Shown in pieces: positions 2,719 through 46,411 of a DNA stretch of 64,000 bases. Numbering within the stretch: position 1 is the first letter of the stretch; the number at the start of each line of letters is the position of its first letter. This DNA comes from Diphasiastrum complanatum (Eukaryota > Streptophyta > Lycopodiopsida > Lycopodiales > Lycopodiaceae). The stretch spans positions 18,610,149-18,674,148 of the forward strand of contig CM055106.1 of the NCBI GenBank assembly GCA_029204225.1, written 5' to 3'. The translations under genes and the position numbers were made by a program. Under the pieces are notes generated by a model. The model saw only the letters and a program-made list of their open reading frames with translations. It did no database searches and was not told where the DNA came from.

Positions 2719-2990
2719 GCTCAAGATAAAGAGTAGGATCCTAGAGAAAACTTTATTCCTTTTGCATTGGAAACTTATGAGTGTTGCATAAGAAATTCGA
2801 TGATTTATCAACTTGTGCAGGTTTTGTAGCGAAGCTCCAAGGACATGCTTCAATGTGCCGTAGTTGCAAGAACGGCTGTTTCACAACTTCCTGCATTACC
2901 TAAACTTGCAACTATCTTAGCTAGTGACTTACATTGCTTTCTACATGCATTGCTTTGTACTCCGATGGGTTTTCCCATCTTTTATTAATA

Positions 2991-3581
2991 AAAACAGGAA
3001 GTTTATCATCTAAGTTCATGATATGGCACCCTCGAATAGGAAAGCAAAAGAGGCAATGCAATAAGGTCTCTCTTAACGAACTCATAATTCTAAAATAGTT
3101 TATTTGTTAGTTTCTTATATTGCTCCAAACAAGATTTTCCATTTGATTTAAATCTAGGAGAATGATATCCCAAGGTTTTATAGAGCAGAGCCACAAGCCA
3201 CTAGTGATTAAAATGAGGTTGACTCAAATCTCATCAAGATTGTTGGATGACCCTACAAAGGCTCAAAGATTATGTAGATAATAGCACAAATGTTATATGT
3301 AACATTTGTGTAGGTAGGGCCCACAAATTGAGTTGGTCAAGTTTTACGTCATTGTATTAAAACATCTTAACATTTGAAATCTTACAAGATTGATGGTTGG
3401 ATTTAAGTCTTTTATCCAATATTATATGTAGCCCTTGTTTCTCCTTGCAATCTTATCGGTTGTAATTTCGTTCACCTAAAATATAGAGCCCTCATGGATG
3501 AAATGTAAAATACACCACTCCTGAATGGAATCTGAAAATAAGGAGCCCTCTTAGATGGTATCTTTCAACCTCTTTACGGGT
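2991..3581. other. No gene seen
   Basis: AT-rich sequence without a coherent ORF, splice-compatible coding block or recognisable repeat. Confidence 0.5.
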
Positions 3582-3741
3582 GTAATTTTTGGACAAGATT
3601 TTTGTGAGGCATGCTAAGCTTAATCATGTACGTTTCTCATCATATGATGGAAATCACTAACCCGTAATTTTTGGACAAGATTTTTGTGAGGCATGCTAAG
3701 CTTAATCATGTACGTTTCTCATCATATGATGGAAATCACTA
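3582..3741. repeat. 82-bp tandem duplication
   Basis: A 78-bp stretch beginning gtaatttttggacaagattt (3582-3659) is repeated at 3664-3741 with no difference that I can see, giving an 82-bp period. Near identity implies a recent event. No ORF is involved. Confidence 0.9.
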
Positions 3742-3837
3742 GTGAGCTCTCATCCATGACATGCTCCTTTCTGCACGTTATTTGGTTCATAGACATGAGT
3801 TGCAAGATCATAATCATAAAAGGATCTCTTGATCATA

Positions 3838-4555
3838 GTTGCATTGCGATTTAGAATCGTGGTCCGAATCGCGATTTGGAATTTTCCTAGAATCGTTTAG
3901 AATCGTGTTTTTTTTTGGGCAATATGGGTATAAGATGAAAGCTCTAAATAAGAGCATTATTACTGTGTAGTTTGCCGAATGTTTCGATTACATGATGGTC
4001 CAATTCAAATGCATTAATCCATGTTGGGTTCTATCAAGGATAAAAATTCAAAACCAACCTCTAGCCTGTTCGTTACAATCACAGATGGTTCAAGTGAGAT
4101 AGAGACAAAGAACTGTAGAGCAATTGTACCTCGCTTTTTGCTTCGGGGGGGCGCTACCCAGAGGGGGGCGTTGCCCCCCCTGCACCCCCTATATATAAAA
4201 ATGGGGTCCAAATGCGTGCCGAGAAGGGCCCAATCTTTATGGCCCCAACTGTATGCACATTGCACTAAAATCTCTAGTGAAATGATTGCAAAAGTGATCA
4301 TCATCCATAGGCTTAATAGTTTGGGCTGTAGCATTAACAATTATTGAGAACCACAAAAAATAACAACCAAACAACTATTGGCTGTTATCTGTTTGTGCCC
4401 CATCTACTGCACTTTTGGGAGGAAAAAGGCTGGTTTGACCATTGCTCCCCTACAAAAATTTCAGCCATAGGATATTTTTTCAAAAAAATAAAAATTAAAT
4501 TTTTTTTGCACGATTCGTTAGAATCGTAATTCGCAGAATCGCGATAAAGAAATTT
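3838..4555. mobile_element. MITE-like unit with cgaatcgcgatt ends and GC-rich hairpin
   Basis: Clusters of the words gaatcg, cgattc and atcgcgat occur at 3838-3912 and again, inverted, at 4508-4550, so the two ends form imperfect terminal inverted repeats about 700 bp apart. In the middle (about 4141-4195) runs of G and C around gcgctaccc and gcgttgcc can pair into a strong hairpin. No transposase ORF is present. A non-autonomous DNA transposon is the best reading; target-site duplications were not identified. Confidence 0.4.
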
Positions 4556-5887
4556 TAAAAATAATGTCCTCTTCCAAAAATATCCAGGAAAGAGCCAAAA
4601 AAGTATGGAAGGTTTTGCCCTTTTGAAATAAGGACTTACTGGCTTTTTGGTGTTTGGTTTTTAAAAAAGCTTATGTGCCAACAAATATATATCTATTTTC
4701 AAAAAAAAAAATCTTTTCAATACTAATTAAAACCTTCAACTGGTTTGAGCTAGTACAATCGTTACACAGTCTCGATGAGGAATTCTTGAAGACAACCTAT
4801 TTGCAGGCCAATACTGATACTTTGTTGCCAGTTTACTATTGCAAAGGAAGTTGACTAGAACTGCTTAGGAACACAATAATAAAGGTTGACATAGACCAGA
4901 CTCAGAAGTCACTTATGGACCAAGGTAGATTAGCAGTAAACTGATTTCTAGAGAAGTCTTGGAAGGCACTAGCATGAAATATAAGTGGGTGCCCTAGAGT
5001 TTTTGTTTCTCTTGGATATCCCTCTATGTGGTTCATTGGAGTCCTTTTTGTTTCTCTTCAATATCCCTTTTTGCAAGGACATTTGAGTTGTCAAGGCTAA
5101 TTCTCTTTGAGTCAATCATAGTTATCTTAGGGGTAGTTACTAAGGGGAACACCCCTGACTTTCAACTATTTGATGAGATCCTGCCAGATTGATAGCATGA
5201 AGGACTTGGGTTCTGGGAATAGACAGATAGTGCATGCTTTATTAGAACTATTCCTCATCTCTGAGACTTGATTATCGAACAAGAGACCTTAATCACTTAC
5301 TTGCATAAAAATATTCATCACTTTTGCCCAGAAGCACAATCAAACTTATGTCTCCTACAGACATTCACATTGAGATGGTATTGGCAAGACTGCATCATGT
5401 CAAATTTGCCAACCATTGGCACAAGTGCCATAATATCAGATGCTTGGAACTGTCATGCACCTTGAGAAAGGAAGAGTGCAACCTCAAAAAATCAAATTGA
5501 AAATGAATATTACGTGTCACCTGTTTGAAAAATAGGAAACAAAATTAAGTCCAACAAGTACATATATTTTCTTTCGGAGGAGAACCAACTCCATTTGCTG
5601 AAAGTAGCTTGGCAAACTACTTTGCACACAATTACCAAATGTAATTCAGTCAGAACCTTTTACAAGAACTGAACTAAACTGTATGTCAGTAGTATTTTAC
5701 AAGCATCTATCTGCAAAGCAGCTTTCAAGCAGTACAACTACAGAACCGCTGCAGCCTGTAAAATTCTTCATGGAAGCGTTTTAAAAACACTAAAAAACTT
5801 TACCTTTTCATCAAAGGGATTCTGCTGATATGGTACAAGATAATCTGTTAAAACAATCAGCTTAACACAGAAAAGTGCTTTACAATC
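4556..5887. other. No gene seen; 3' flank of SCAMP gene
   Basis: AT-rich DNA downstream of the SCAMP stop codon. The part next to 5888 should contain its 3' untranslated region on the - strand. No other coding block was recognised. Confidence 0.4.
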
Positions 5888-8800
5888 TCAAATCGCTGCC
5901 CGTACAGCACTCCGCGCAAGCTGCCGCTTCATTTCAGCCTCCTTGCCCGTTCCTCTGAAGTAGCTATACACTTGCTGTGAAAAACCAACGTGCACATCAG
6001 TGATATGTTCAAAATACAAACCTAGAATACATAATGAACGAATTATTGGTCTTCATTTTGAATCCTTCCAATCCCAGAACATCTTCATCCAGCAAGGGAG
6101 TCATAACGCTTTGTATATGGATGCCCAAATTACAAGAACCCAAAATCTGAATCCCTATCTGTTTGATTGGAATATATTCAAATTCCCCCTATAGAAGACG
6201 AGGTTACTAAAGGCCAGATTTTTAATGTCAGTAATGTTTCGGTCAAATTATACGTTTCAATCATATCTATTTGTGAAATTAGAATATATCCAATTTCACA
6301 AATTTGTATAGAGAAGTCAGTGATGTCATAAGGTAAAGCTTAGAAAGAATATACGAGCAACTCAAAAAGTCAAAACAATAATATACAATTCAATAAACAA
6401 AAAATCTCAGCCAAACAACATTGCTTATGTCTCATCAGTACCCAAGAATAACTTGTTAACTGGGTTTCGAAAATATCCGGATTCTCTTGGGTAGACCCAG
6501 TGTTGACTGAGAAGCAAAAGACAATTAGTAAGAGGAAAGAAAAAATAATAATACTAATGATAAGAATTCAAATAAAATGAAATTAAAAATTAAATTTTTT
6601 ATAAAATATAATAAAATCAAATAAACAAAACAAGGACCATAATATATAGACAAGTTACCGAGACAAAGACAAAATACAAAATACTAGAAACAAAGTGGGC
6701 TCCTTAGCTCCCCACTTTCTGGACTCTATTATTAATCATCTTAAACATACCAAAAAGCTGAAATGCCAAAGATAAAACCAAAAGAGTCTCAAACAGTTCG
6801 AACTTCTCTCATGAATTTCTTAAACGAGTAACCCTTATGGAGTAAGAAAATGATTAGATTGCTTGACTGGTCTACAAAAGCATCTCTACTAGTACAAAGA
6901 CGAGAAAACCTGTAGAATTGAGAAGTTATCACTCCATATTCAACAGAATCTGAAATATTTGAAGAAATATGAGGCATGCAAATTATGTTCAAGTTCGTGT
7001 ATTCTGGCTGCAGCCTTTTATCAAAACTATCAAGCTTATAGACAGGTCTAAAAAATTGCACTTATCATCACTAGTTGTACAATTAAGTTCACATGAGTCT
7101 TTAGGATAGATTCCTCCACCAAAATGTTAGGGTCTTTATACACTAAAACATATACAAAAAGTCGTCTCCAAGCAACCAGAGGTAGAATCTAGCAAGCAAG
7201 AATCACTTATTGTTTATCAGCACCAAGGCATAGGTAGCTATTTTCCCCATTCATTCAATGTCCTGATTCTTAGGCTTTCCGTAACCCTCAGATGACCAAA
7301 TATAAGGGTTGAAATGTTTTTTTCTCTTGTATGTCCTCATTTGTGTGACTTATTGGAGTTGAACTCATAACCTCAAGTGCAGAAAAAAAAGCTTTCACCA
7401 GCATGTCACTTCTTGGAGGACAAGGATTGAAATAATTGTTGAAGATGGATTTAATGATCTGAAAGAATATCTAGGCTTTTTCTCGTCTAAGAACAGAACA
7501 ACATTCCGAAATGAAGGGGCAAAAGGCATCAGGATCATTGACCTGTGTATGATCTGACCACATGAATAATTTATGAGATTGTGCCTATCCTTGTTTAGGC
7601 AAATGGGCTCATGATCAAGAGGTATCAGAAAGGGATCGGAATTGGATACTAAAAGGTCAATTGGCAAGCTAGCGTAAGAAATTTTTGTTCTAGATTGTCC
7701 TTGAAGTTGGTTGGATAGTTTGTAGAAGGCACAGATGAGTTTGCAACTTGCATTGCGAATGGTCTACAACTAGTCCTAACTTTCTACTTTCTCGGGAAAT
7801 TAATGCCTTACAACAATAATCATTCAAGTCTTATAAAAAACTGTCCCTCAATTCTTTGTTACCACTTGCTTTACATATTTTTTGCTACAGCAAGCAGTCA
7901 CCCCCTGTCTCTCAAAATTGGTTTGCATCCTGCTTCTCAGCAGGACAACCATCATAATCCACATTATGGTCATGATTATACACCAACATTTACATACAAA
8001 TACTTTCCAAGGAGCAACTCTCAAATAGGCAAAGGGTTCCTTTACCTGAAGTACCCACAAGCTGAGCAACAACTCCGTGCTGAATAGGATAGCACCAATA
8101 AGGTAGAATATCTGCAATTTCATTCAGCAAACGAGAAAAAAACATTGTCAATTTCAGGCTCCGCCCCATCCCCAAAGTGTGCATGAAGATAGAGCCTTTG
8201 ACTACCCAATAGAGACAAACTTATTATGATTGCCAAAAGCAAGCAGGACACAGCCACTGACCCCAATCACAACACTTTTGCCGAAAATCTGAAAGAGTGG
8301 TAAAATCCCCCTGCAAGAGATGCATGATGCTCGTATTAGATATTGACATTATAATCAAAGATCACAAATGCTCTCAAATACATACTGAAGAACAATTTTG
8401 ACATTAGTAAGATCAGTTAAAGACTGAACCTTACTAGCATACAGAAATATTAAGCAGGTAAAAAATCTGCTAATCATAAGCTTGCGACCTTCTGATTGGT
8501 GTTTGCTAGAAAATGGTATGTAAACTCACGCTAAAGATCTTCCTTTGAAGACAATGGGTGGTGCCACAACAGCCAAGATACAAAAAACAATATGAAGCTG
8601 GAACCAACCACAATATCCACAGCTCAGTTTACTTATCACTTATGTCCTACAAACTTTGTGAAGTGATAGAAATGAGAAAACTGATATTCAAGCTCTTACT
8701 TTTACTGCAGCAACAAAATATTTTTACAGACTTACAAGATATGCAAGGAAGAACCATCCAAACTTTAATGCACTTTCACTCCTGCAAATAAGAAATGGAT

Positions 8801-11800
8801 GAAATACTTATGTTTCTAAGATGGAAAAGATTTTATGCAACTTAGTATTTCAACTGTTAGTTGAGCTGCTTGCTTGGAAACAAATTCAACACAAACAGAT
8901 ACTGCCATTAAACAGAGTTGAGGTAATAAGCATATAGCAGATCACTATGATTGAAAGATCTCTATTACAAAGATCGACAAAGTTTCTGATTGCCTCATTT
9001 ACTCATGTTCTACTTACCTCATTGCTCGATACAGAGGCCTGTACCATAAAAAATATGAACCAGGTACACCCGCAATTGCATAGATGATGGCAAGGAACCA
9101 GATTTGAACTCCTGAAAATCAAATAAAATCTCTGATCAGTTTTTTCTGCAGGATTACTCTGCTCAAGTTCTAGCCAAAATCTCTTATAGGACATTCAATC
9201 TGTAGAGAATGGAAACTTTGTGTGGCCAAGGATTTACCGTAGGTTGAACTCACAGCATGTACAATCCATGCACCAGTGACGGCAATGAAGTTCCACGCTA
9301 AACAAACCATTATACCTGCACAGTTATCGGCCATAAAACTTCAATAAGGATGTTCAGTCTGGGACAACGACATGAAATCAGCAATGAAACCTTATTTAGC
9401 ATACAACACATGCAAATGCAATCAGATGTAATGTGATACATGAAAGAAAAGGATATTTTAAAAACTGGCCAGACACCATCAAGATGATCTAAGGTTTACA
9501 AGAGACATCTCAGACAAGCCTGTCATTTTACAACAGAAATATCAAAGTATTGTGTTGAAGCTAGCAAAAAGGATGCTTTCAATCTAGCTTTACATACCAA
9601 GCCAGCTCAGGTATGCACGATACTGTAGCCGCTGCAAGTGCACAGGAATGTCTTTACCAATGTCATGATAAATGATTGGAAAAAATCTTGGCCAATTTTT
9701 ATCTTCAAGGACAATGCCAGCTGCCAGTGACACATTTTCACATTTTCAGTTTCACCAGCACTTCTAATGTTCTGCAAGTAAAATATTCTCATAAAAGAAC
9801 AATTAATGAGCTCAAGTCACAGATAAGTCTGCTGAGAAACATACATCTCTTAGGTGCCCCACATATGCTTACCTCGTGCAGCAGCATCCTCCTTACGTTT
9901 CAGTTCCTGCAGTAACCAAAGGAAAATGAAAGAAATCTCAAAGTGGCAAAAATCCTCCCTGAAATGAGCAAATGCATGCCAAAACTTATGTTGCTCGATC
10001 ATTCTAAAAAGTTGTGGAAAAGTAGCAGATTCTTATGGCAACATCTTTTTTTAGAGATTTCAGGGGAGAAAATGTTGGGAGCTCATTAATACCCAACTGC
10101 CAAAAGAAATAATTGCTATACTTCCAAAAATAGGTTCATGTTACCTTGGCCTTGCTTTAAAAGACAGAAATTGAAGCACATTTGTAGAGTGGATATTATC
10201 AGTCCTAGAAACAACCTAAAATCATTGAATTTCATTCTAAACATTCATAATCAGTCTCAAAAAGTTCAAGATGTTCATAGCTTAGCAAACCGAAAACCAT
10301 AGAGAGACTAAGAATCTGCATGAGGAACACAAGAGAGTGGCAAGATAGCATACAACTCTTAGATCACATAACAGTTCCTAGTTAATAAGAAGTTCTATTC
10401 AGAAGTTCATCCTTCATAATGACCGTCAAATAAATTCAACATAACTCTACCTTCCAAGTAATTGCAACTTTTCCCAACCTTACAAAAATGGTTTCCATTG
10501 ATTGGAACCTTGATCCAAATATCATCCTTATTCCCAACCTCACAGCAGACTTTCAAGTAGATGAGCAAAATATCACCCTTGTTACTAAGAAATCAAAGGT
10601 TTCCAATGATTTAGAGTTATCTTGTGAACTTATAAGGAAGTTACTTGTTGCCTCATTAGTTACATTTGAACCACTAAAGTGCAATTATTGAGCACAAAAA
10701 AGGTTCTTGGAAGGTATATGATGTTATGTCAGGGCTGTCCTAGACAGACAATATAGAGTTTTTGAAAGAATATGAACTATACTTCACTCTTAAATTTTTC
10801 AGTGAAGTTCTGAGAATTTGGACTTTAAGTCTCTTCAAACTTCAAGTCTACCCTCATGGTGTCTCACAAAGCTATAAAGCGATATAAATATTTGGGGCTG
10901 GAATTTGAGAATAACTACAAGTGAAACTTAAGAGTAGACAAGAGAGCCCTAGAAGGTCAAAAGGCTCTCTTTATTATACAAAATAAATAGGGATTTGGGA
11001 AGTTCAACTATGCAGTTCAAAGGATGACGAAGTGTCTTCTCATTATTTCGGTCCTACCAAAGTTGCCAGTTGTGGGTTGCCTCGGAACGGTGTCCCGGGT
11101 CCCTGCGTTCCGGAACACTGTCAGCGAAAAAACTGGAAATTTTTTTAAAACTGCCACGAAGCCCCCATTTTCAGCGCGCGAAGAAAGGCTTGTGGAGAGA
11201 GGAATAGGAGGCCAAATGGGTAGTGTGAGCACTCTATGTGGAGGTCATGATGAGTGCAAGGTGAATGTAGCACATAGAAGAGGGCAACTATGAGGCATGT
11301 GACGAATGTGGATTAGTTGCCATGTTTTTGTATCATATACACTTAGGACTGTAGTCTGCACTATGTGATTGCTTTCAAGTTTCAGTTTTGGTATGGAGCA
11401 TGCTAAAGCCTAAACGCTTTGTTCAGTTAGTGAATGGACTTCAATGTAATATGCTTTGTTCAGTTAGTAATAGACTAGTAGCAAGTACTTACAGTTAGTA
11501 ATTACTCTGCTTTGCAATGTGTTTGAAATTTTTTTTACGTCACTACATGTTGTTTTTCCCCACCCCCAACAAACGGTTAAAAAAAAACCAAAAAAGTAAA
11601 ATTTTGCAGCGTTCCAATCCGGAAAACTGCTGAATCCCGGAATGCTTTACTAGATATAGGTAGTATTATTAGCAATTAGCTTTTGCTGTTTTGCTATTTG
11701 CTTTAGGCTCTTAGCTTTTCTCATTCATTAGAGAAACAAGTAGGCTTGCGCCCCACCACAATCATTCCATTCAATTCTCCTATGATCTGAATTCTCTCTA

Positions 11801-23879: not shown

Positions 23880-24470
23880 TCAAGAACTTTTTTTGGCTCT
23901 TCTTCCCTCATGTGTGAATGGATTCCGATGTTGTTTGCCTTTTTGACAGGCTTCGCAAAACTCAGTATCAGGTCTGGATATCTTCAAACCTGTGACTATA
24001 TCTTTCTTGCACATGTCATACAGGCTCCTCATGTTCAGATGGTACATTCTTCTGTGCCAGAGCTGATCTTCATTTTCTGATGCATTTAGTATGCTATCAG
24101 AATTGCTATCTTGGCTTGGTAGAGATTCCCTTCTCTGCATCCAACTGTTAGCAATTTGTTTGTTGTTTTCTCGATCATTCGACATGTATTGCCATCGAAT
24201 AAAACTCGAATTCAAGATCTGCCATCTTGGAGACTGATAGCAGGTCTTTTCTCAATGAAGGTACGTAGAGTGTTCCTGGCAGCTCTGCTTGACTTGACAG
24301 TGTTCGCAGCTGTAGAGTCCCGATGCCTTTAACATCGTGTCGGCTCCCATCATCTAGAATCACTGCTCTGTTGTTTTCGAGCTCTCTGAAGTCGATCAAG
24401 ATTATCTTGTTGTAGGTGATGTGTGAGGTTGCTCCTGAATCAATGACTACATCATAGTCTTGTTCATGTA
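23880..24470 (-). pseudogene. copia element 1 protease/GAG-pre-integrase
   Basis: The frame that ends at 24175 carries DDGSRHDVKGIGTLQL and LYVPSLRKDLLSVSKMADL (C-terminal half of the aspartic protease). The next frame, ending at 23880, carries LWHRRMYHLNMRSLYDM and F-C-E-A-C-Q-K-GK (GAG-pre-integrase zinc site). They are separated by frameshift. Confidence 0.8.
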
Positions 24471-24710
24471 ACTTGTTGAAGCTTCATCAAGTATTGTGAA
24501 AGCTTCATCACCTCTATCTGCATCCTTGGATGACTCTACAACATTTGCTTTTTTTAACTTTGTTCTTTCTTTTTGGGTTGAATATGCAATCGTATGTAGA
24601 GTGCCCCTTCTTCTTGCAATGCATGCAAGGTATCGTTGGATTGAACCATCACTTATTGGCTATGTGTCCTGATTTGTGATTTTTCGTTTTTCTTTTTTTG
24701 ATTCTATTCT

Positions 24711-25494
24711 GCTCTAATTCGTGTTGATCCAAATTGTGTATATATCTCCACTGTGTGGAGTTTAGAAGACAGCTAAACAGAGAATCACAAGACAAGTAAA
24801 CGTTAATCAGCTAGCTGGTTATTCTCTGTCGTGTTGGGAAAAGAGTGAAAGAGGGTGTGAGAAACTAAAATAGCTCGAAAAGAAATGAACACGAAAAGAA
24901 ACGAACTCGAACGAAAAGTATTCGTGCGCAGCGCGAAATGAGCTACATTACTCTTTCTCTAAGCATGACTACGCCTATCAGAAACGAACAGAATGTTAGT
25001 GATAGAAATCACGGTCGATTTGATTACGTAGCCAAACGTTAAGTAGCAAAAACATCAGAAGGATAATTTGTCGCGAACAGCTAGACAAATTATTATTCAC
25101 GAATAGTTTGCAAAGAGTTAGACTGAGCTCGACTGATAATCAGTCACGAATAAGTCGTGAAAGACAAGACTAAATATTAGTCACCAACAGTTAGACTAAT
25201 AATAATTCGCTAAGAATAGATTACCAGATTGAGCAATAAGAGAGTCAGACAGATTATAGAAAAGCATAGCAATATTGACACAAATCTGAACGTAGGACAA
25301 GACAGAGCTGTTATCAGATTAAGTATAGCAAAATATACATGTCAATAATGTTGTTGAGCACAAGACGAAAGCGAAAAAAACTACGTGCTCTACAAAGCTA
25401 ATCCAATCTGTAAGAAGGAATAAACTTATATCTGACAATACAAAAGAATCAATGCGCAAGGCATCTACTTCACCTATCTCTGATAAGTTTCTAA
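24711..25494. other. LTR-like or leader sequence without genes
   Basis: AT-rich with many gaacgaa, cacgaat and agac words, and repeated short motifs (attagactaataataattcg-like). Composition and position suggest the 5' LTR or leader of copia element 1, later split by the element at 25495-27859, with 27860-28050 as a possible continuation. I could not show terminal repeats. Confidence 0.35.
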
Positions 25495-26041
25495 TGCTAT
25501 TATTTTTCACACACACTAGCTGTTGAATACGCAAAATGGTATTCAATATATATATACACAATTTTACAGGTGTGAAGATGAAGAAAGTACAAAGTGGATG
25601 TGTTGTCTGTAGGAGATTGTGGGTGGCTGCTGTCGTTGTCAAATTTGTTAGCATAGTTGCATGGGGTGAGCGTGAAAAAGCCGCAACATCAACCTTTGCT
25701 GAAATGAACGTTGGTGAAGATGTGAAAAATGCAACACTCTGACAAATGCCTAAGGATTTGATTTATAGGGTGCCTTTGCTTTTCCTAGGGCACCTCCGAC
25801 ATTTTGTAAGGCAGTGTTGTCTTTTTCACTGTCACAAAGCACGTGTAAAAACATAGTGTCGCATTTTTTGCATTTTTCACCTATGAAAAATTACTTGTAT
25901 TTATGTAGACAATCGAGTTTCTTTCGCCTGTCTTCTTTTACATTTGAATATGCAAACTGTGCGACAACATGAGTAAAAATGTAGCATGAATAGAGGCAGA
26001 TTAAAATAGGATTTAGGAGAGTAGAGGAGATAAATCCAACA
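25495..26041 (-). repeat. 3' LTR of copia element 2
   Basis: 547 bp on the - strand from TGTTGG to ATAGCA. It contains a TATA-like run (tatatatatacac at about 25545). Homologous to 27339-27859, with several small indels. Confidence 0.85.
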
Positions 26042-26048
26042 CCCCCCC

Positions 26049-26546
26049 TTAATCTGGATCCATGAATGCCTTCATCTTCAGAATAAGCAATGCACAAAAT
26101 TTGTTGTATGCATTAACACTTAATGCCTTCATGAATATATCTGCAACCAATGTGCTTACTCCTAGAGTGAAATCTAGGTTGGTCGATAAGGAAATAGCAC
26201 TCTGATTATCACAGATTGTAGGGCTGTACTGATACAGATTAAGGTTTGATAGTAAATTTCTCAACCAAAACGCTTCCTTAATAGATTGAGAAGCTGCAAT
26301 GTATTCTGCTTCTATAGAAGAAAGTGCGATAGAGGTTTGCTTACGACTGTTCCATGAGATAGGGCCATCGTTGAAGAAGAATGTAAATCCAGATGTGGAC
26401 TTACGATTGTCTACATCTCCTCCCCAGCTTGCATCTAAAAATATCCACAAAGCTGATGAAGATTGTCGTTGCTGACATTTCCATAGCAGATGCACTGGTC
26501 CATGGTAGCTCGAATATATCTTATGACTCTTATGAGAGCCTTCCAA
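26049..26546 (-). pseudogene. copia element 2 RNase H
   Basis: Shows DASWGGDVDNRKSTSGFTFF, KQTSIALSSIEAEYIAAS and CDNQSAISLSTN, with a shortened join to LVADIFMKAL (the HTKHI segment is missing). The frame closes at 26049 just before the polypurine tract. Confidence 0.88.
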
Positions 26547-27261
26547 TGGGTAATGCCAGGATTAGCCATATATTGGCTGAGTGAGCTTACAACAAAAGAG
26601 ATGTCTGGTCTTGTACAGACCATTGCGTACATGAGAGATCCCAATATCAATCGATAAGGATACTCTCTCATCTGCTCCTCTTTCTGCTTGGTCTGGAGAC
26701 ATTGGTCCTTTGACAAATGTAGGCCTGGATCCATTGGTGAGTGAGCTAATTTACAATTCATTAGATTGTATCTGTTAAGAACATTGTGAAGAAACCTTTG
26801 TTGAGTGATGTAAATTAGTCGTCTCGTTCTATCTCTATGGATTTGAATGCCCAAACAAAAGTGAGCTTCGTCTAGATTAGTCATGTCGAACATGAAAACA
26901 GCATCTGCTTAGAATCCTTGACCAAATTGGTATTGTTGCTGAAGAGCAACGTATCATCCACGTATAAGGTGATGATAATGAAGGATTGCTGCACTGACTT
27001 GGAATAGACATTGCAATTAGCACTGCTTGGTTTGATTCTTTGTTCGATGGGGAATGTGTTGATCCTCTGAAAGCAAGCTCTGGCAGACTGTTTCAAGCCG
27101 TAAAGTGCTTTGTGGAATTTACAGACATGATTCTTCATACCTTCCAAAACATATCCTTCGGGCTGGATCATGTAGATGTCTTCTTGTATAACTCCATTCA
27201 GATAAGCTGTTTGTACATCAAGTTGATGTACCTCAAGGTCGGCAGCTGCAACATAAGACAT
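26435..27261 (-). pseudogene. copia element 2 reverse transcriptase
   Basis: The frame from 27261 has VHQLDVQTAYLNGVIQEDIYM (first catalytic Asp), ALYGLKQSARAC and the intact LYVDDTLLF box. A frameshift near 26890 moves to a frame with EAHFCLGIQIHRDR, SPMDPGLHL and YRLILGSLMYAMVCTRPDI. The start is created by a deletion and is not a true initiation site. Confidence 0.88.
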
Positions 27262-27338
27262 GAGGGCTTAGATCGACGAATGCTTGACTACCTTCTACAC
27301 CTGTAACAACGCCATACATATCTCTGATAAGCTCTTGA

Positions 27339-30199: not shown

Positions 30200-31773
30200 T
30201 CATGCATCCAATTTGGTTGTGTGAGGCTTAGGCACCATTATGTTGAAGTTTTGCTTGTTGAAGGAGTCCAAAAATGCATTTTTTGCATGATCTGATCTTA
30301 TGATTACTTGCTGGACCTGATAGAAGAGAAGTGGAACAAGGCTTCCAATTTGGATTTCATTCAAATCACCGTGCCATTTCATTTTTGCAGCTTTTGCACT
30401 TTGCCTATTCTTCCTTGAGCCCACATAAATTTCATGTTCCTCACCTTGCACAAGCTGCAAGAAATCATTATCTCGAGGAAGATCTGAAGGTTCGACAGCC
30501 GTAGTTGATGTTCCTAATTTATGAGGCCAATGAAATTCATCAGTTGTTGATGTATGTTCGAGATTGAGCAAACTGATTTTTTGTTCCTCGAAAAAGTCCA
30601 TCCACCAATGCTGATCAAACTCATCAAAAAAATGATAAGCTATTTGAATACTTGATTCCAAAAAATTTAATGAGACAAATGGATCAATCTCACGATGTTC
30701 TCTTTGCGCCTTTTTTCTTCTAGAAAGGACTTCAAGGGAGACAATACAACAAGCTTGATTTGAGTCAATGGAATGTTAAGCAAAAATCGAACTCCTTCAA
30801 GAGGTAGCCACAAAACTAAATTTGAAAATAGTTTGCCCCATAATAATATAATGCCTGATTCGTCACATTTGATTTTAAACTGGTGCTGAAAGCTAATATC
30901 ATTAATATTAGCTATGCATCGCTCTGTTTCGTTGGACGCCTTAACATAATCGTGAAAATCATATGTGTGTCTGATTAATGACATGTTTGGCTTTGGCACA
31001 TACGATTCCTCAACAATGTTTTGAAGCACTAGTAATGAAAATGCTTTCTTGCGTCTCAACCTCTTAGAAAAGCAACTAAACATTTGATCAATTTGTGTGT
31101 GTCCTACCAACAAAAATCCTATTTTTACTTTTTTGAATTTTTTTTTCTCCACCAGCATAGACAAGTATGTCAAAACAGTTTGGTTTTTATTTTCCCTAGC
31201 AGTGTTGTCAAGCTGCAAATAAAGTATTTCTGGAAGATTTTCACCAAATTCGCAAATTATCTTATGTACAATGGTGATCGTCAAATTTGGATCATTTTGA
31301 ACATTGGGATAATTAAAAAAGACCTTGGACTCCAAAGTGCCATTAAACACAAGTGCTCGAACGAGATGAACCTGAATCAAATTTTTGGGCACTCTGAAAA
31401 AATGAGACAACATTATTTTCTTCTGATCCATGCCATCAATAACAAGGCCTAGATATTTTTGTGGACATTCCAAACATTTCTTTCGATGCTTGGCCAACTT
31501 TTGTCTTTCAACTGTTTGTTGATCTCTGTGCAGTTGAAGAGCTTTTGCAGCATCCACTGAAAATACAATGATTCACTTATTTAATAGAATAAAGATCATA
31601 CCATAATGGTGTTCAAAAAGACTGCAAATATTATCCGGCAAGTGAAAATATAAGGAATTAGGCAATTTCTCTCCGTGCACATCTATGAAATGCTTTAGCC
31701 AAGCAGTTGCATTTAGATTATTTTCATTTTTTAACTTTGTTTTATGCTTAGCATGGGTATTAAATTTTTGCAT
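30200..31773 (-). pseudogene. DUF7869-like, DDE-transposase-like gene remnant
   Basis: Two exons join in frame: 31773-31602 (donor ATG/GTATGATC) and 31556 onward (acceptor TTTTCAG/TGGATG). The second exon has LGLVIDGMDQKK, a segment FNYPNVQNDPNLTITIVHKI, LYLQLDNTARENKNQ and GFLLVGHTQIDQMFSCFSKRL. From memory these match a widespread family, often found in transposon-like contexts, annotated as DUF7869. Invariant Asp/Asn/His residues in DGMDQ, DNTARENKN and GHT...ID suggest a metal-dependent nuclease fold, which is inference. The frame closes at 30667 and similar C-terminal sequence continues in another frame from 30661 to 30200, so a frameshift is present. The N-terminal part of the family is missing. 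It points away from the palindrome array. Confidence 0.55.
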
Positions 31774-31824
31774 CAGAAAATATTCATGTTTTAATTTGTA
31801 TTCATCTTCTTAAAACATGAGTAA

Positions 31825-32435
31825 CCTATGCTCAGCATAGGTGCTTGCACCAGTCCTCTCCTCTAACCTATGTTGATCATAGGTTGTGTTCGGGTCCTTA
31901 GTAACATCCTATGCTCAGCATAGGTGCTTGCACCAGTCCTCTCCTCTAACCTATGCTGAGCATAGGTTGTGTTTGGGTCCTTAGTAACATCCTATGCTCA
32001 GCATAGGATTCCGACGTTCTATTCTAACCACGGTTTGACCTATGATGAGCATAGGTTGCATCTGTGGTCCTCTTCTAACCTATGCTCAGCATAGGTTAGC
32101 AAGCAAATTGCGAAGAAATCCTATGCTGAACATAGGTTAGACTAGAGCGCGCGAGTAACGACCTATGCTGAGCATGGGCTAGAAGACAACTAGAGATGCA
32201 ACCAATGCTTAGCATAGGTTGTCACTCGCGTGCGCTAGTCCAACCTATGCTCAACATAGGATGTCTTCGCAATTTGCTTGCTAACCAATGCTGAGCATAA
32301 GTTGGAAGAGGACCAGAGATTCAACCTATGCTCAGCATAGGTCGAAAGGTGGTTAAAATTGAAAATCCCGCCGGCTTCCTATGTTGAGCATAAGTTGTTA
32401 CTAAGGACCCGAACACAACCTATGTTCAGCATAGG
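31825..32435. repeat. Phased array of 15 copies of a 17-bp palindrome
   Basis: The unit is CCTATGCTSAGCATAGG, self-complementary except for the centre base. Copies start at 31825, 31867, 31908, 31950, 31991, 32039, 32079, 32120, 32162, 32202, 32244, 32285, 32325, 32378 and 32419. Twelve of fourteen steps are 40-42 bp, close to four helical turns; the other two are 48 and 53. Spacers of about 24 bp differ between neighbours but are mirrored about 32190. The array lies between the - strand DUF7869-like remnant and the + strand ORF set. It is not a CRISPR array, because the spacers are mirrored and the context is eukaryotic. Confidence 0.97.
31842..32007. repeat. 83-bp direct duplication inside the array
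   Basis: 31842-31924 and 31925-32007 agree at about 80 of 83 positions, each spanning two palindromes. This duplication explains why the left flank has three more palindromes than the right. Confidence 0.93.
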
Positions 32436-32436
32436 T
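31949..32436. repeat. Large inverted repeat made of palindromes
   Basis: 31949-32178 and 32202-32436 are imperfect reverse complements including the spacers (for example gcaagcaaattgcgaag on the left and cttcgcaatttgcttgc on the right). Copies 4-9 pair with copies 15-10 in order. The only length difference is the 48- versus 53-bp spacer. Confidence 0.93.
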
Positions 32437-32707
32437 CGCTACTCGTATTTTTCTTGTTTTACAAGGCTTTGTATGAGAAAAGTGATTTGAGATAGTTTAG
32501 TAAGAATTTTTAGTAAAAAGTGATTTGTTGAATTTTTCATCAAAAGTGATGTGTTGAATTTTTAGTTTTGTTTTTTAAAGATTTTTCACAAAAACGGCTT
32601 GTCTTATTAAAGTTTTCAGTATTTTCATTAAGGTAGTGTTTTGAATTTTCCTAAAAAATCTTTTTTCTTTTTTTGCAGATTTTCAATTGTCTTTGATAAT
32701 TTACGAA

Positions 32708-34938
32708 ATGTCGAGGATTTCTTTTAAATTTTCGGGTAAACCTCAAGATAATCCGTTGAAAGATAAAAAAAAAAATTCATGTACTACTTCACCAAAGGGG
32801 TCAACAACACAAAGCTTTCGGAGCTTTTTATTCATTTAGCTGAGAAGCCTGACAGGGGAGACTCACAATTCAAAGTTCAACCAGATGAGGATCAGGAAGA
32901 AGGCTTTATGAACGTACTTGTAAAGGAGACGGATAAGTCTCGTTCTATTTTCATTCTGAACGAGACTATGATAAAGATTCGACTTTGCCAGGACAAGGCC
33001 ATCAAAGCTTATTTTGATAAAGCTCTAGTTACTTTGGTGTGTAATTATAAAACATATTTTTATTCATGTTTGTCTACATTTGTTTCATGCTTAACATAGT
33101 TGTTACTAAATATAAAATTCTATAAACTTTTAGATAAAAGCCTTTACTCATCATATTTTAAACTTGATTTTTGTTTCTGTCCAGAGCATAAAGCAATGCT
33201 TAAAAATGGTTCTAGTTGCTATTGTTGAGGGGAAAGATCCGGTTTATTCATTACGGAGTTCAAAAGGTGTATGTATTAGACCTCACAGACCTGCTTCTAC
33301 CACTGCTCAGGTCACAAAGCTGGTCTCTAAAAATGTTGAGGATAAAACTGTAGCTATCCCTCATCCCAAAAAAAAGAGATCTCATAATATTTCGGAGTCT
33401 TCTCCCACTAGACCTAAGTCACGTCCAAAGACTATGGCTACAACCCCATAAGTCCATCCCGTCTGCTGAAAGCAAAAAAGCCGCCATCGAACCATCTATG
33501 TCGCTACCTGGTGCATCCATCCGCCCTTTACAAGACAGCTCTGAGCTTGCCAAATTAAAAAAAAAAATTCATAAAACAAAAAAATAAAAGAAACAGCTTT
33601 AATTTTAGATATAAATCAGTGTGATAGGCCACCTGTAGATCCAATAATAGGAGACAGGCCAAACCGAATGAAACCCTGTACATAATTTAAAAATAAAATT
33701 TAAAGATCATAAACAGGCCATAGTTACTCCTCGTGTTGTTTTGGTTGATCCCAACGAATGCAACGATGTTGCAATTATCAAATATATATTTTTTTAGTTT
33801 TATTTCAGGTGTGGGCCCTTGTTGATAAATTTTTTGATAAATGGAAAACTTTCCAAATAAAAGGCCAACCTGCTAAGGGTGCTTCAAAGTCAAAGAAAAA
33901 AGTTGTGAGTACTCAAACTTTGAGGCCAATCCCTACATAAATAGAAATATCAGAGTGGAAGAATATGCAAGGGATTAGCTCTTCAGAGCTAATAATAAGT
34001 GTTCTTTCTAGAGTTGCAGATGGTCAACTTTCTTTGACAAAAATGGGGAAAGAATTTCAAAGGTAATAGTCATAATCTAAATATTTATTTTCATGTTACC
34101 TTTTGTAATAAAGTGATTTTCATGATTTTGTTGGATTTTTAACAATTATACTTTTTAAATGTAGGCATAAATTATTTATGAAAGTTCAAGAAGCCCTTGT
34201 GACAGGGTTAAATTGTCAAGATTTCGATGAGTGCCAGAGGCTTTATCCTCTGAGCAGCCGAAATGAATCTTTGAGTCCATTTCTGATTTTGTTTAGAGAC
34301 ATGGTATTTATTTCACCCACACTTAGCATAGGTGCTTATTAATTGTTTCTTTTCTATATTCTATGTCTCCTATGCTAAGCATAGCTTTTTCTCTATTTAA
34401 TTTAATTTTTATAAGTTAAGTCTCCTATTCTATTTTATATTTTTTGTCTCCCATGCTAAGCATAGCTTTTTCTTTTTCAGTCTCCCGAAAACAAGAAAAA
34501 CAAAGTCCTTTTAGAGCAATTTAAGAGACATATTCTGAAGGCAAAAGCAAAAAAAAAGGACAAGGAGAGATTGGCACGGGATGAGACCATTGCGGAGGAG
34601 GATCCATTAGAGACCTACCTTCCCAAAAGTGTCGATGATCAACCATGCTTTTACTCAGTTGAGGAGGGCCATTGTAGAGAAATTTCAAAATTAAAAAAAG
34701 AAGAAGGCCTTATACACTCTGCATCGCCGATATATCATATGAATTTCAGACGAAAGAATTATTAAATGACGATTCCTCTTTTAAATTCACTGAAATCCAT
34801 AGTTTTATGCAGGGTTTTTTTGAAGTCACAACTTCTCCAATTTGGAGAGTTGTTATTTTTCATTCTTCTTGGCAGTCAGCATCAGTACATAAAGCTCTAC
34901 TAACTTTCTATAATGCGCGAATAAAGAATGATGTGTGG
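32708..34938 (+). pseudogene. Unrecognised multi-exon gene remnant, divergent to the DUF7869-like gene
   Basis: After an acceptor-like ttttttgcag, an ATG at 32708 opens MSRISFKFSGKPQDN. A run of A at 32767-32776 shifts the frame into a 106-codon frame (YYFTKGVNNTKLSELFIHLAEK...). Further blocks follow plausible acceptors: SIKQCLKMVLVAIVEGKDP (33184; ends with a Lys/Ser-rich basic stretch and another frameshift at about 33450), VWALVDKFFDKWKTFQIKG (33809), HKLFMKVQEALVTGL (34165), and a Lys-rich block SPENKKNKVLLEQFKRH (34481) followed by a frame change into FTEIHSFMQGFFEVTTSP. The blocks look like one decayed protein with basic stretches. I know no family for it. Three palindromes like those of the array occur in its introns. 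Confidence 0.45.
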
Positions 34939-35489
34939 TAAGTTTCTAAGTTCCTGAATTATTAATTCGTATTTTAATTCATATTTTTATTTTAAAGTTA
35001 AAATTTTAAACTTATTTTCAAATTTTTAACGTAATTTAAAAAATATTTTTTTCGATACAAGAATTGTAATTTAAAATACTTTTAAAATTCCAAAAAAAAA
35101 ACTATAACTTTTGTTTTAAGTAAGCAAAAAATATTTTTTAGGTATTTTAGTGGTTGTGTATCTAATGATTTTATTTTGAATAGCATTATTATTTAATATA
35201 AGATAATTTTAAGTTATTTATGAAAATCTATCGACCAAATTTTTGTAGCTTGAATTATTTTCTTGCAAAATACAACATTTTTTTTAATATTACAATATAT
35301 TTATTTGAAGCATTTTAAATTTGGATACTTTTTAAAAAAAAATTAAAAATTAAAAAAAAGGATCTCCAAGTCATTTTTTTTTGGTCATTATGTTAAAGGT
35401 GTTCCATACAAGAATCTAGTAATTTGGATTCTATTTGTGGCATTAAAGAGTGTTCTTTTATAATGACTGAGACAACCAAGAGAAATTCT
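34939..35489. other. AT-rich stretch, no gene
   Basis: Very AT-rich with A/T runs. No coding block or repeat was recognised. Confidence 0.6.
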
Positions 35490-36327
35490 AACTTGCTAAA
35501 GAATTAAGTTCCTTTTTATTGATTCTGAAATAGATATGGGATATCTAGGACAATATGGTATTCGGTTTTGTTGAGATCTGTGTTGTTTTTGGGTTAGTGA
35601 ATACACTTGAGACATTTCATCTATACTTAAACGATACATTTTTGTCTCGTCCATGTTGGGGTACAATGAGGAGTGGTATTCTTTGGGTAACACTTAAAGG
35701 AACATAAGGGATTTCAATGGTTAGATGTATCTCCTAGAATTGGTTGTGATTCTGATCCTATAGTTGGATATAGGATAGTTAAATAATCTTTTTGACTTTT
35801 TGGACAAAATAGATCTAGATGCAAAGTATTCTTGGAGGAATAGCTGGTGGTGTTTGGTCTGATAGTGAAAATCCGTATATTTTTGAAGACTGGAAATGCG
35901 GCACTCCTTGGCCTTCTGGCCGTTGCCTTTACCTGAGGGCAGCCTTCAGGATTTGTAAGACACCTTCGACGTTTGGAAGACACCTTCGGTGTTTGAGACA
36001 CCTTCGACATTTGAGACACCTTCGGCATTTGTAGCTTCGGCCTATTGTAGGGCAAGTGTCGTCTGTTTTTCGCCTGTTGAAAACTACATGCAAGCAATTT
36101 TCGTCTGTGTACAAACCCGTGTGAAACTTGCATTGTCGCATGTCAGAAAACTCAGGGTAAAAAGAGTGTCAGGTTTTTTTCATTTTTCGGTTGTGTGAAA
36201 TATGCGAGTAAAAATCCAGATTGTAGCGACAATTTATTTTCTGTAGGTTACATTTGAGAGTATAAAATTTCGAGAAGGAAGGAGGGCTGTTGGCATGAGT
36301 AGGAGTTAGTTTAAATTCCAACACTGC
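35490..36327 (-). repeat. LTR-like sequence with CCTTCG tandem motif
   Basis: On the - strand the segment begins TGTTGGAATTTAAACTAACTCC, similar to the LTR start of copia element 2, and the nearby wording (atgagtaaaaatgcag / gcgagtaaaaatcc) is also similar. At 35958-36035 an 18-21-bp unit (gacaccttcgacatttga) repeats four to five times. No partner LTR or primer site was found; a solo or truncated LTR is likely. Confidence 0.4.
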
Positions 36328-45899: not shown

Positions 45900-46180
45900 A
45901 ATTTCATGTAAAAACAATTCAATAATTTAATCCTTCAAATCTGAGTTGTCAAAAAATCTATCTGATTCGCTGATCACTCTATCAGCTACAACAACACACC
46001 CAAATTCCATTCGATAATCCTTCAATAATCTAATCCTGTAGCTCTGACTTGTCTAAAATACTATCTTATTCCTTAATCATTCTAAATAGGTACAGCAAAA
46101 TTACCCAAAATTCATCTGATAATCTTTCAATGATCAATTCCTTTAACTCTGAATCTGTCTTATACCTTAATCACTCTAAA
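45900..46180. repeat. Degenerate repeats upstream of the bZIP gene
   Basis: About three degenerate copies of a unit near 100 bp share ccttcaataatctaatcctgt-like, gacttgtctaaaatactatctt-like and ttaatcattctaa-like words. Confidence 0.55.
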
Positions 46181-46411
46181 AGCTACTGTGGACTTAAAGA
46201 TTGAAGAGTTTCCTCACTGCAACTACATGATTCTCACCCGTTTTACAGTCGTTTTCGTGTCTCGCACTTCCCCAGATCTTCCCTGAACTTGCTAGAAGCT
46301 ACTGTGGACTTAAAGATTGAAGAGTTTCCTCACTGCAACTACATGATTCTCACCCGTTTTACAGTCGTTTTCGTGTCTCGCACTTCCCCAGATCTTCCCT
46401 GAACTTGCTAG
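46180..46411. repeat. Perfect 116-bp tandem duplication
   Basis: 46180-46295 and 46296-46411 are identical over 116 bp (aagctactgtggacttaaag ... gaacttgctag). It lies about 600-800 bp upstream of the bZIP ATG, possibly within its promoter or 5'UTR intron. Identity implies a very recent origin. Confidence 0.97.

What the first reader, a model, noticed from the sequence alone, without database searches (positions are those of the whole stretch)
31825..32435. Helically phased array of 15 palindromes, about 41-bp period
Fifteen copies of CCTATGCTSAGCATAGG start 40-42 bp apart in 12 of 14 steps, so their centres face the same side of the helix. Each is a perfect dyad around one centre base. This is what a cooperative, dimer-binding protein array would need (iteron, transposase/recombinase-binding or operator array). 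I know no described plant repeat with this unit. The spacers vary while the palindrome and its phase are kept, which suggests selection on the palindromes.
Basis: seen in the sequence. Interest (0 to 1): 0.88.

Follow-up and report, generated by a model that had tools for sequence, protein, structure and literature searches.

The report
Palindrome array inside a plant transposon
The repeated palindromes appear to be a built-in control region in the middle of a very common jumping gene of this plant-like genome, lying between its presumed transposase gene and a gene for a bacterial-type DNA-methylating enzyme, which makes it a good place to test whether jumping genes chemically mark their own DNA.

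Summary
The array is real: 15 copies of a 17-bp palindrome at 31825-32435, 12 of 14 steps 40-42 bp; 6 of 15 are perfect dyads. It is not free-standing. The exact 17-mer occurs at 1,698 sites in the 1.74-Gb genome. Of the 14 site clusters listed first (all on one contig), 12 have flanks of one transposon family. That element is about 6.9 kb, with an 11-bp terminal inverted repeat AACAYGATGAC and a 4-bp target duplication (exact in 2 of 3 independent insertions). It carries two head-to-head genes, a DUF7869 protein and a protein with an N6/N4 DNA methylase domain, with the array between them. A diverged subfamily has the palindrome in the same place with a 28-bp period, so the palindrome is conserved but the 41-bp phase is not. 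Best reading: clustered binding sites for an element-encoded dimeric protein, acting on the divergent promoters and possibly on methylation, like VANC motif arrays. A Sola1 element of Ectocarpus has a similar opposite-strand methylase gene. Binding and methylation are inferred. The window copy is left-truncated and lacks the methylase domain.

The parts
31825..32435 (.). Central array of 15 copies of the 17-bp palindrome CCTATGCTSAGCATAGG; 31949-32436 is also an imperfect inverted repeat
31825..31907 (.). 83-bp tandem duplication that adds two palindromes in the window copy; the best-matching related arrays match the window from 31908
   Evidence: (83-bp unit, 2.2 copies, 97%)
30667..31572 (-). 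DUF7869 (PF25273) ORF, presumed transposase gene; the frame continues in 30200-30775
   Evidence: E 2.9e-45; (4267 first-look candidates genome-wide, 131 scored)
30200..30775 (-). Continuation of the DUF7869 gene in another frame; similarity to other copies stops near 30327, where the window copy is truncated
32708..34941 (+). Remnant of the divergent second gene (likely start at 32708; open pieces 32767-33099, 33134-33451, 34466-34941). About 520 bp present in L035 are missing at about 33774, and the stretch matching L035 8336-9518, which holds the methylase exon in other copies, is missing after 34993
34369..34385 (+). Additional palindrome in a presumed intron of the second gene; copies occur at the corresponding place in L035, L037, L038, L039 and L040
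34450..34466 (+). Additional palindrome in the same presumed intron
35383..35394 (+). Right terminal inverted repeat GGTCATTATGTT of the element
30327..35394 (.). Recognisable extent of the transposon copy in the window (left end lost)

Best explanation
The array is the central non-coding control region of a high-copy DNA transposon with two divergent genes: a DUF7869 protein (presumed transposase) on one strand and a protein with a bacterial-type N6-adenine/N4-cytosine DNA methylase domain on the other. It is a cluster of binding sites for a dimeric protein encoded by the element, most likely the methylase-bearing protein or the DUF7869 protein. Bound there, the protein regulates the two promoters and helps keep the element's chromatin active, possibly by methylating the element's own DNA. 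Clustering, and extra copies in presumed introns, give element-specific recruitment, as VANC motif arrays do in VANDAL elements. Shown here: element structure, gene content, position and conservation of the palindrome. Inferred: binding by an element protein, promoter control, methylation or anti-silencing.
For: 1,698 exact 17-mer sites in the genome and 0 for the reversed control pattern, against about 0.2 by base counting; 13 isolated sites in a 257-Gb prokaryote collection, against about 30 by base counting. Of the 14 clusters formed by the sites listed first (contig C1 below 30.2 Mb; two of them 3.3 kb apart), 12 have element flanks outside the array. Left ends: of 22 junctions (20 of the 40 matches listed, plus L035 and L042), 18 read AACACGATGAC, 3 AACACAATGAC and 1 AATACGATGAC; two later ones read AACACGATGAC (L064, L066) and one AACACGATAAC (L083). 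Right ends: GGTCAT[C/T]AT within 1 mismatch in 21 of 22 junctions. TSD TCAA/TCAA and ACAT/ACAT, the third TTTC/TTTT. Of 134 listed DUF7869 matches, 22 have one of the 150 listed second-gene matches within 9 kb, 20 of them head-to-head; 8 DUF7869/left-end and 5 second-gene/right-end pairs all fit one order (lists; some pairs are duplicate assemblies). N6_N4_Mtase: E 1.9e-12 in L038, 8.6e-10 in L086. L086, whose alignable coding stretches are 76-82% identical, has 11 motif copies (2 exact, 9 with 1-4 mismatches) in the same intergenic position with a 28-bp period. L089 has 5 motif copies where 200 shuffles give a mean of 0.04. L126, a 4.4-kb derivative with both ends, keeps an array of 11 palindromes.
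Against: No binding, expression or methylation data. Palindromes are not better conserved than non-CpG spacers among copies of one subfamily. Two of 14 sampled clusters (L090, L091) have no nucleotide match to the element references; L091 lies by a different, unidentified ORF. Of four more divergent DUF7869 loci examined, two have an array (L086, L087), one has lost the region (L088) and one has only scattered motifs (L089). In L089 the methylase piece tested is below Pfam's cut-off (E 0.046). No ParB or other DNA-binding domain could be shown in the second protein. By my count only 17 of 134 DUF7869 matches and 11 of 150 second-gene matches are free of stop codons, so present activity is not shown. 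Two of 22 gene pairs are not head-to-head.
Confidence: 0.6

Rival explanations
1. Plain autoregulation: the DUF7869 (transposase-side) protein or another element protein binds the array as an operator for the divergent promoters, with no role for DNA methylation.
For: The array lies between head-to-head genes and is nearly dyad-symmetric. The + gene's likely start codon (32708) is about 270 bp from the array.
Against: Motifs also occur in a presumed intron of the second gene, about 2.4 kb from the array in L035. An operator would rarely need 13 sites (general knowledge).
Confidence: 0.2
2. The palindromes bind a host transcription factor that the element exploits as an enhancer.
For: A conserved multi-site cluster upstream of both genes would suit this; 2 of 14 clusters lie outside the recognised element.
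Against: 12 of 14 sampled clusters are element-borne. Host promoters were not searched for the motif.
Confidence: 0.12
3. The array is a by-product: a palindrome prone to hairpins expanded by tandem and inverted duplication, without selected function.
For: 83-bp duplication in the window copy, dyad-symmetric duplicate arms, 28-bp unit in L086 and a roughly 185-bp higher-order unit in L090, no extra conservation of palindromes within the subfamily.
Against: The motif is kept between subfamilies whose spacers differ, and motif copies persist in presumed introns of several copies and in a deletion derivative.
Confidence: 0.13
4. Transposase end-binding or replication iteron array.
For: Repeated dimer sites are typical of such arrays (general knowledge).
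Against: Nearest motifs lie 1,325 bp from the left end and 1,890 bp from the right end in L035; short TIRs and TSDs point to cut-and-paste movement, for which no replication origin is needed.
Confidence: 0.04

Closest known systems
Sola1-1_Ec32, Ectocarpus (PMC12477816)
   Same: DNA transposon with, on the strand opposite to the transposase, an accessory gene with an N4C/N6A DNA methyltransferase domain; [quoted passage not shown]
   Different: 21.5 kb there, about 6.9 kb here. The published protein has a ParB-like domain that I could not confirm here. No palindrome array is mentioned in the passages I saw. Transposase homology to Sola1 could not be tested.
VANDAL21/VANC21 anti-silencing system, Arabidopsis (PMC5735166)
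   Same: Short motif accumulated by tandem repeat formation in introns and upstream non-coding regions of a transposon and bound by an element-encoded protein (passages seen).
   Different: VANDALs are Mutator-like (recalled); the motif is 9 bp and arrayed in one orientation. Here the motif is a 17-bp palindrome and the element encodes a DNA methylase. A VANC homologue was not looked for by name; none of the Pfam scans made named one.
Bdelloid rotifer N4CMT (PMC8885841)
   Different: A host gene fused to a chromodomain there; a transposon-borne multicopy gene here.

Membership tests
Cut-and-paste DNA transposon (class II) | Terminal inverted repeats | tested here: met
   AACAYGATGAC at both ends: 22 of 22 left junctions within 1 mismatch of AACACGATGAC; 21 of 22 right junctions match GGTCAT[C/T]AT within 1 mismatch
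Cut-and-paste DNA transposon (class II) | Fixed-length target site duplication | tested here: met
   4 bp, exact in 2 of 3 independent insertions, 3 of 4 bases in the third
Sola superfamily | 4-bp TSD (recalled from the literature; paper not held) | tested here: met
   4-bp TSDs are shared by other superfamilies (recalled), so this is weak
Sola superfamily | Transposase homologous to Sola transposases | not testable with these tools
   No Sola sequence was at hand; DUF7869 is a domain of unknown function in Pfam; the single-sequence fold has mean pLDDT 32.8
Sola1 with ParB-methylase accessory gene | DNA methylase gene opposite in strand to the transposase gene | tested here: met
   20 of 22 DUF7869/second-gene pairs head-to-head; PF01555 E 1.9e-12. 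That DUF7869 is the transposase is presumed
Sola1 with ParB-methylase accessory gene | ParB-like domain | tested here: inconclusive
   Resemblance by eye only; PF02195 0 matches in the genome, hhalign probability 0.13%, the 15 best hmmsearch scores both ways were all shuffles, AF2 mean pLDDT 38.9
VANC-type anti-silencing system | Motif clusters in non-coding parts of the element | tested here: met
   central array plus copies in a presumed intron of the second gene
VANC-type anti-silencing system | Element protein binds the motif and removes silencing | not testable with these tools
   needs ChIP, EMSA and methylome data
Satellite DNA | Long free-standing tandem arrays without linked genes | tested here: not met
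   short arrays in element flanks at 12 of 14 sampled clusters; L090 may be an exception

The most novel reading that the evidence does not exclude
A land-plant transposon carries its own bacterial-type DNA methylase together with a dense array of that system's palindromic target sites, and uses sequence-specific 6mA or 4mC marking of its control region to resist host silencing: a self-written epigenetic mark.
Probability: 0.3. Interest if true: 0.88.

Novelty: new variant of a known kind. Interest (0 to 1): 0.6.

Why it matters
Methylase genes in algal transposons have been proposed to bind and modify the element itself (PMC12477816, passages), but the passages I saw name no target site. Here such a gene sits next to a conserved, clustered 17-bp palindrome in a genome with many candidate copies (1,150 first-look candidates for the left end, 40 of them scored). 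If the protein binds or methylates that palindrome, long-read modification data alone could show it, and the question whether eukaryotic transposons write their own DNA marks becomes directly testable. Even without methylation, it would be another case of motif arrays evolving with a transposon-encoded regulator.

Tried and rejected
Free-standing regulatory or iteron array: rejected, because flanks and ends show a transposon. Satellite: rejected as the main reading. Structured RNA of a known family: 0 Rfam matches at gathering score in 30300-35500. ParB: tried with Pfam, PDB sequences, NCBIfam and PHROGs, hhalign with shuffled and reversed controls (one of 5 shuffles gave an artefactual 99% on 18 columns, so that test is weak), hmmsearch both ways and AlphaFold2 on 10 sequences; nothing supported it, so I claim only a resemblance by eye. 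DUF7869 as an RNase-H-type transposase: AlphaFold2 without an alignment was useless, so no fold search was made. PADLOC gave bacterial type II methyltransferase models for the L086 methylase piece (best E 8.1e-10) and nothing for the other two proteins given. Phage relatives of a 127-aa methylase piece: none at E 0.01. Prokaryote scan of the 17-mer: 13 single sites, no more than chance. Literature: DUF7869 in 0 papers; DNA transposon + adenine methyltransferase + ParB + plant in 0; other searches; passages of PMC12344493 gave nothing on the point. Selection within the subfamily on palindromes: not found.

Full report
The observation. Fifteen palindromes of the form CCTATGCTSAGCATAGG occupy 31825-32435, 12 of 14 steps being 40-42 bp. 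A hundred shuffled windows gave a mean of 0.10 matches (largest 2) against 18 in the real window. Six of the 15 are perfect dyads and 6 match the 17-mer exactly; 7 have one arm mismatch and 2 have two. The spacers are arranged so that 31949-32436 is also an imperfect inverted repeat, 83% identical over 496 aligned positions. The first 83 bp belong to a tandem duplication that the best-matching related arrays lack, since they match from 31908.

Genome-wide distribution. The genome of the window has 1.74 Gb in 5,176 contigs. The exact 17-mer is found at 1,698 places and the reversed control pattern at none; base counting would give about 0.2. A 257-Gb prokaryote collection holds 13 single sites, where base counting gives about 30. 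A DNA search with the array gave 102 matches from 40 scored of 518 first-look candidates. Copies share not only the array but sequence on both sides of it. As a sample not chosen by similarity I took the 14 clusters formed by the sites listed first (contig C1 below 30.2 Mb; two of them only 3.3 kb apart). Twelve have element sequence outside the array; two (L090, L091) have none at the nucleotide level, and both have spacings near 28 bp.

The element. Comparison of ten-kilobase stretches located the ends. Of 22 left junctions, 18 read AACACGATGAC, 3 AACACAATGAC and 1 AATACGATGAC; at least two share one flank. Three seen later read AACACGATGAC twice (L064, L066, one insertion) and AACACGATAAC (L083). 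The right end, GGTCATCATGTT or close to it, matched GGTCAT[C/T]AT within one mismatch in 21 of 22 junctions; shared flanks reduce these 22 to 18 insertions. The ends form an 11-bp inverted repeat. Three independent insertions had both junctions: TCAA/TCAA, ACAT/ACAT and TTTC/TTTT, i.e. a 4-bp duplication with one base different in the third. L035 is 6.9 kb from end to end (2788-9691). The window copy has lost its left end (similarity stops near 30327), lacks about 520 bp near 33774 and the stretch matching L035 8336-9518, which holds the methylase exon in other copies, and ends at 35394.

Genes. The minus-strand ORF left of the array has the Pfam domain DUF7869 (E 2.9e-45); the genome holds 4,267 first-look candidates for it, of which 131 were scored. 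The plus-strand gene right of the array carries an N6_N4_Mtase domain in other copies (E 1.9e-12 in L038; 8.6e-10 in L086, but only 0.046, below cut-off, in L089). Pieces read DIPYGF and VLDLFSGSGTT, which I take as methylase motifs IV and I from memory. Its upstream part resembles ParB by eye, but every test was negative or uninformative. Of 134 listed DUF7869 matches, 22 have one of 150 listed second-gene matches within 9 kb, 20 of them head-to-head and 2 on one strand; 8 DUF7869/left-end and 5 second-gene/right-end pairs fit one order. Some of these pairs are probably duplicate assemblies of one insertion. Four of the 40 listed right ends have a methylase match 1.1-1.5 kb inside (into which I entered only 6 of the 150 listed methylase matches).

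What is conserved. Six of 18 aligned 41-bp arrays have the step series 42,41,54,40,41,42,40,42,41,40,54,41, symmetric apart from its first step, and two more differ by one base in one step. Several of the 18 were cut short by the search, and not all are independent. Within this subfamily palindromes diverge by 4.1%, all spacer positions by 5.8% and non-CpG spacer positions by 4.7% (palindromes against non-CpG spacers p 0.90), as expected if copies drift after insertion. Between subfamilies it is different. L086, whose DUF7869 protein is 66% identical to the window's and whose alignable coding stretches are 76-82% identical to L035 or L042, has 11 motif copies (2 exact, 9 with 1-4 mismatches) in the same intergenic position, with 7 of 10 steps of 28 bp and other spacers. 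L087 keeps the 41-bp array, L088 has lost the region, and L089 has five scattered motif copies where shuffles give 0.04. So the palindrome, not its helical phase, is the conserved unit; phase coherence is absent in L086 at 10.2-10.6 bp per turn. Extra motif copies sit in a presumed intron of the second gene and near 4.1 kb in L035; none in L035 is nearer than 1.3 kb to the left end or 1.9 kb to the right end. A 4.4-kb derivative (L126) with both ends, lacking nearly all of the DUF7869 exon and three stretches of the second gene, keeps an array of 11 palindromes.

Interpretation. A dimer-sized palindrome, clustered between two divergent genes and repeated in presumed introns, kept by a transposon through subfamily divergence, is best read as a binding-site array for an element-encoded protein. 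VANDAL21 works in this way: VANC21 binds a short motif that accumulated as tandem repeats in introns and upstream regions, and VANC proteins induce loss of DNA methylation (PMC5735166, passages). The methylase gene adds a second possibility, that the element marks its own DNA. A Sola1 transposon of Ectocarpus has an opposite-strand gene with ParB-like and N4C/N6A methylase domains, and its authors propose that such proteins may bind and modify their own element, citing green and red algal cases (PMC12477816, passages). The element here agrees with that kind in gene content, orientation and a 4-bp duplication (the Sola value is recalled), but Sola homology of DUF7869 could not be tested, so I call it Sola-like at most. 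Binding, regulation and methylation are inference.

Limits. Searches score only the best candidates, so counts are lower bounds. Unplaced contigs often duplicate chromosomal copies, so not all copies are independent. By my count 17 of 134 DUF7869 matches and 11 of 150 second-gene matches are free of stop codons, so whether any copy is active is open. Introns are presumed from frames and splice-like sequence, without RNA data. The species is not told; a lycophyte such as Diphasiastrum is my guess from assembly size and number of large contigs, recalled and untested.

Noticed in passing
L091:620-790 (G000:C1:12720400-12722000): A cluster of the same palindrome, 26-32 bp apart, lies beside minus-strand ORFs (722-1273, 1344-1601); the first has no Pfam identity, the second was not scanned. 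Possibly another transposon lineage using the same motif.
   Followed up: partly
L090:400-1260 (G000:C1:5995900-5997500): The palindrome sits in a higher-order tandem repeat of roughly 185 bp (judged by eye) with 28-bp inner spacing.
   Followed up: partly
G000:C1:64737173-64745036: Four right ends of the element repeat at 2,570-2,571-bp spacing, suggesting a tandem array of element pieces.
   Followed up: no
G000:C6:63473316 (L041) and C6:63682892: Two of 22 DUF7869/second-gene pairs are on the same strand, unlike the other 20; possibly a rearranged variant.
   Followed up: no
window 23880-27267: Remnants of a Copia-like retrotransposon on the minus strand, judged by eye from the ORF list.
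   Followed up: no
window 46176-46411: A 116-bp unit duplicated in tandem at 99% matches, apparently recent.
   Followed up: no
genome-wide (G000): N6_N4_Mtase: 150 matches from 150 scored of 1,605 first-look candidates, a large expansion of a bacterial-type methylase domain in a plant-like genome.
   Followed up: partly
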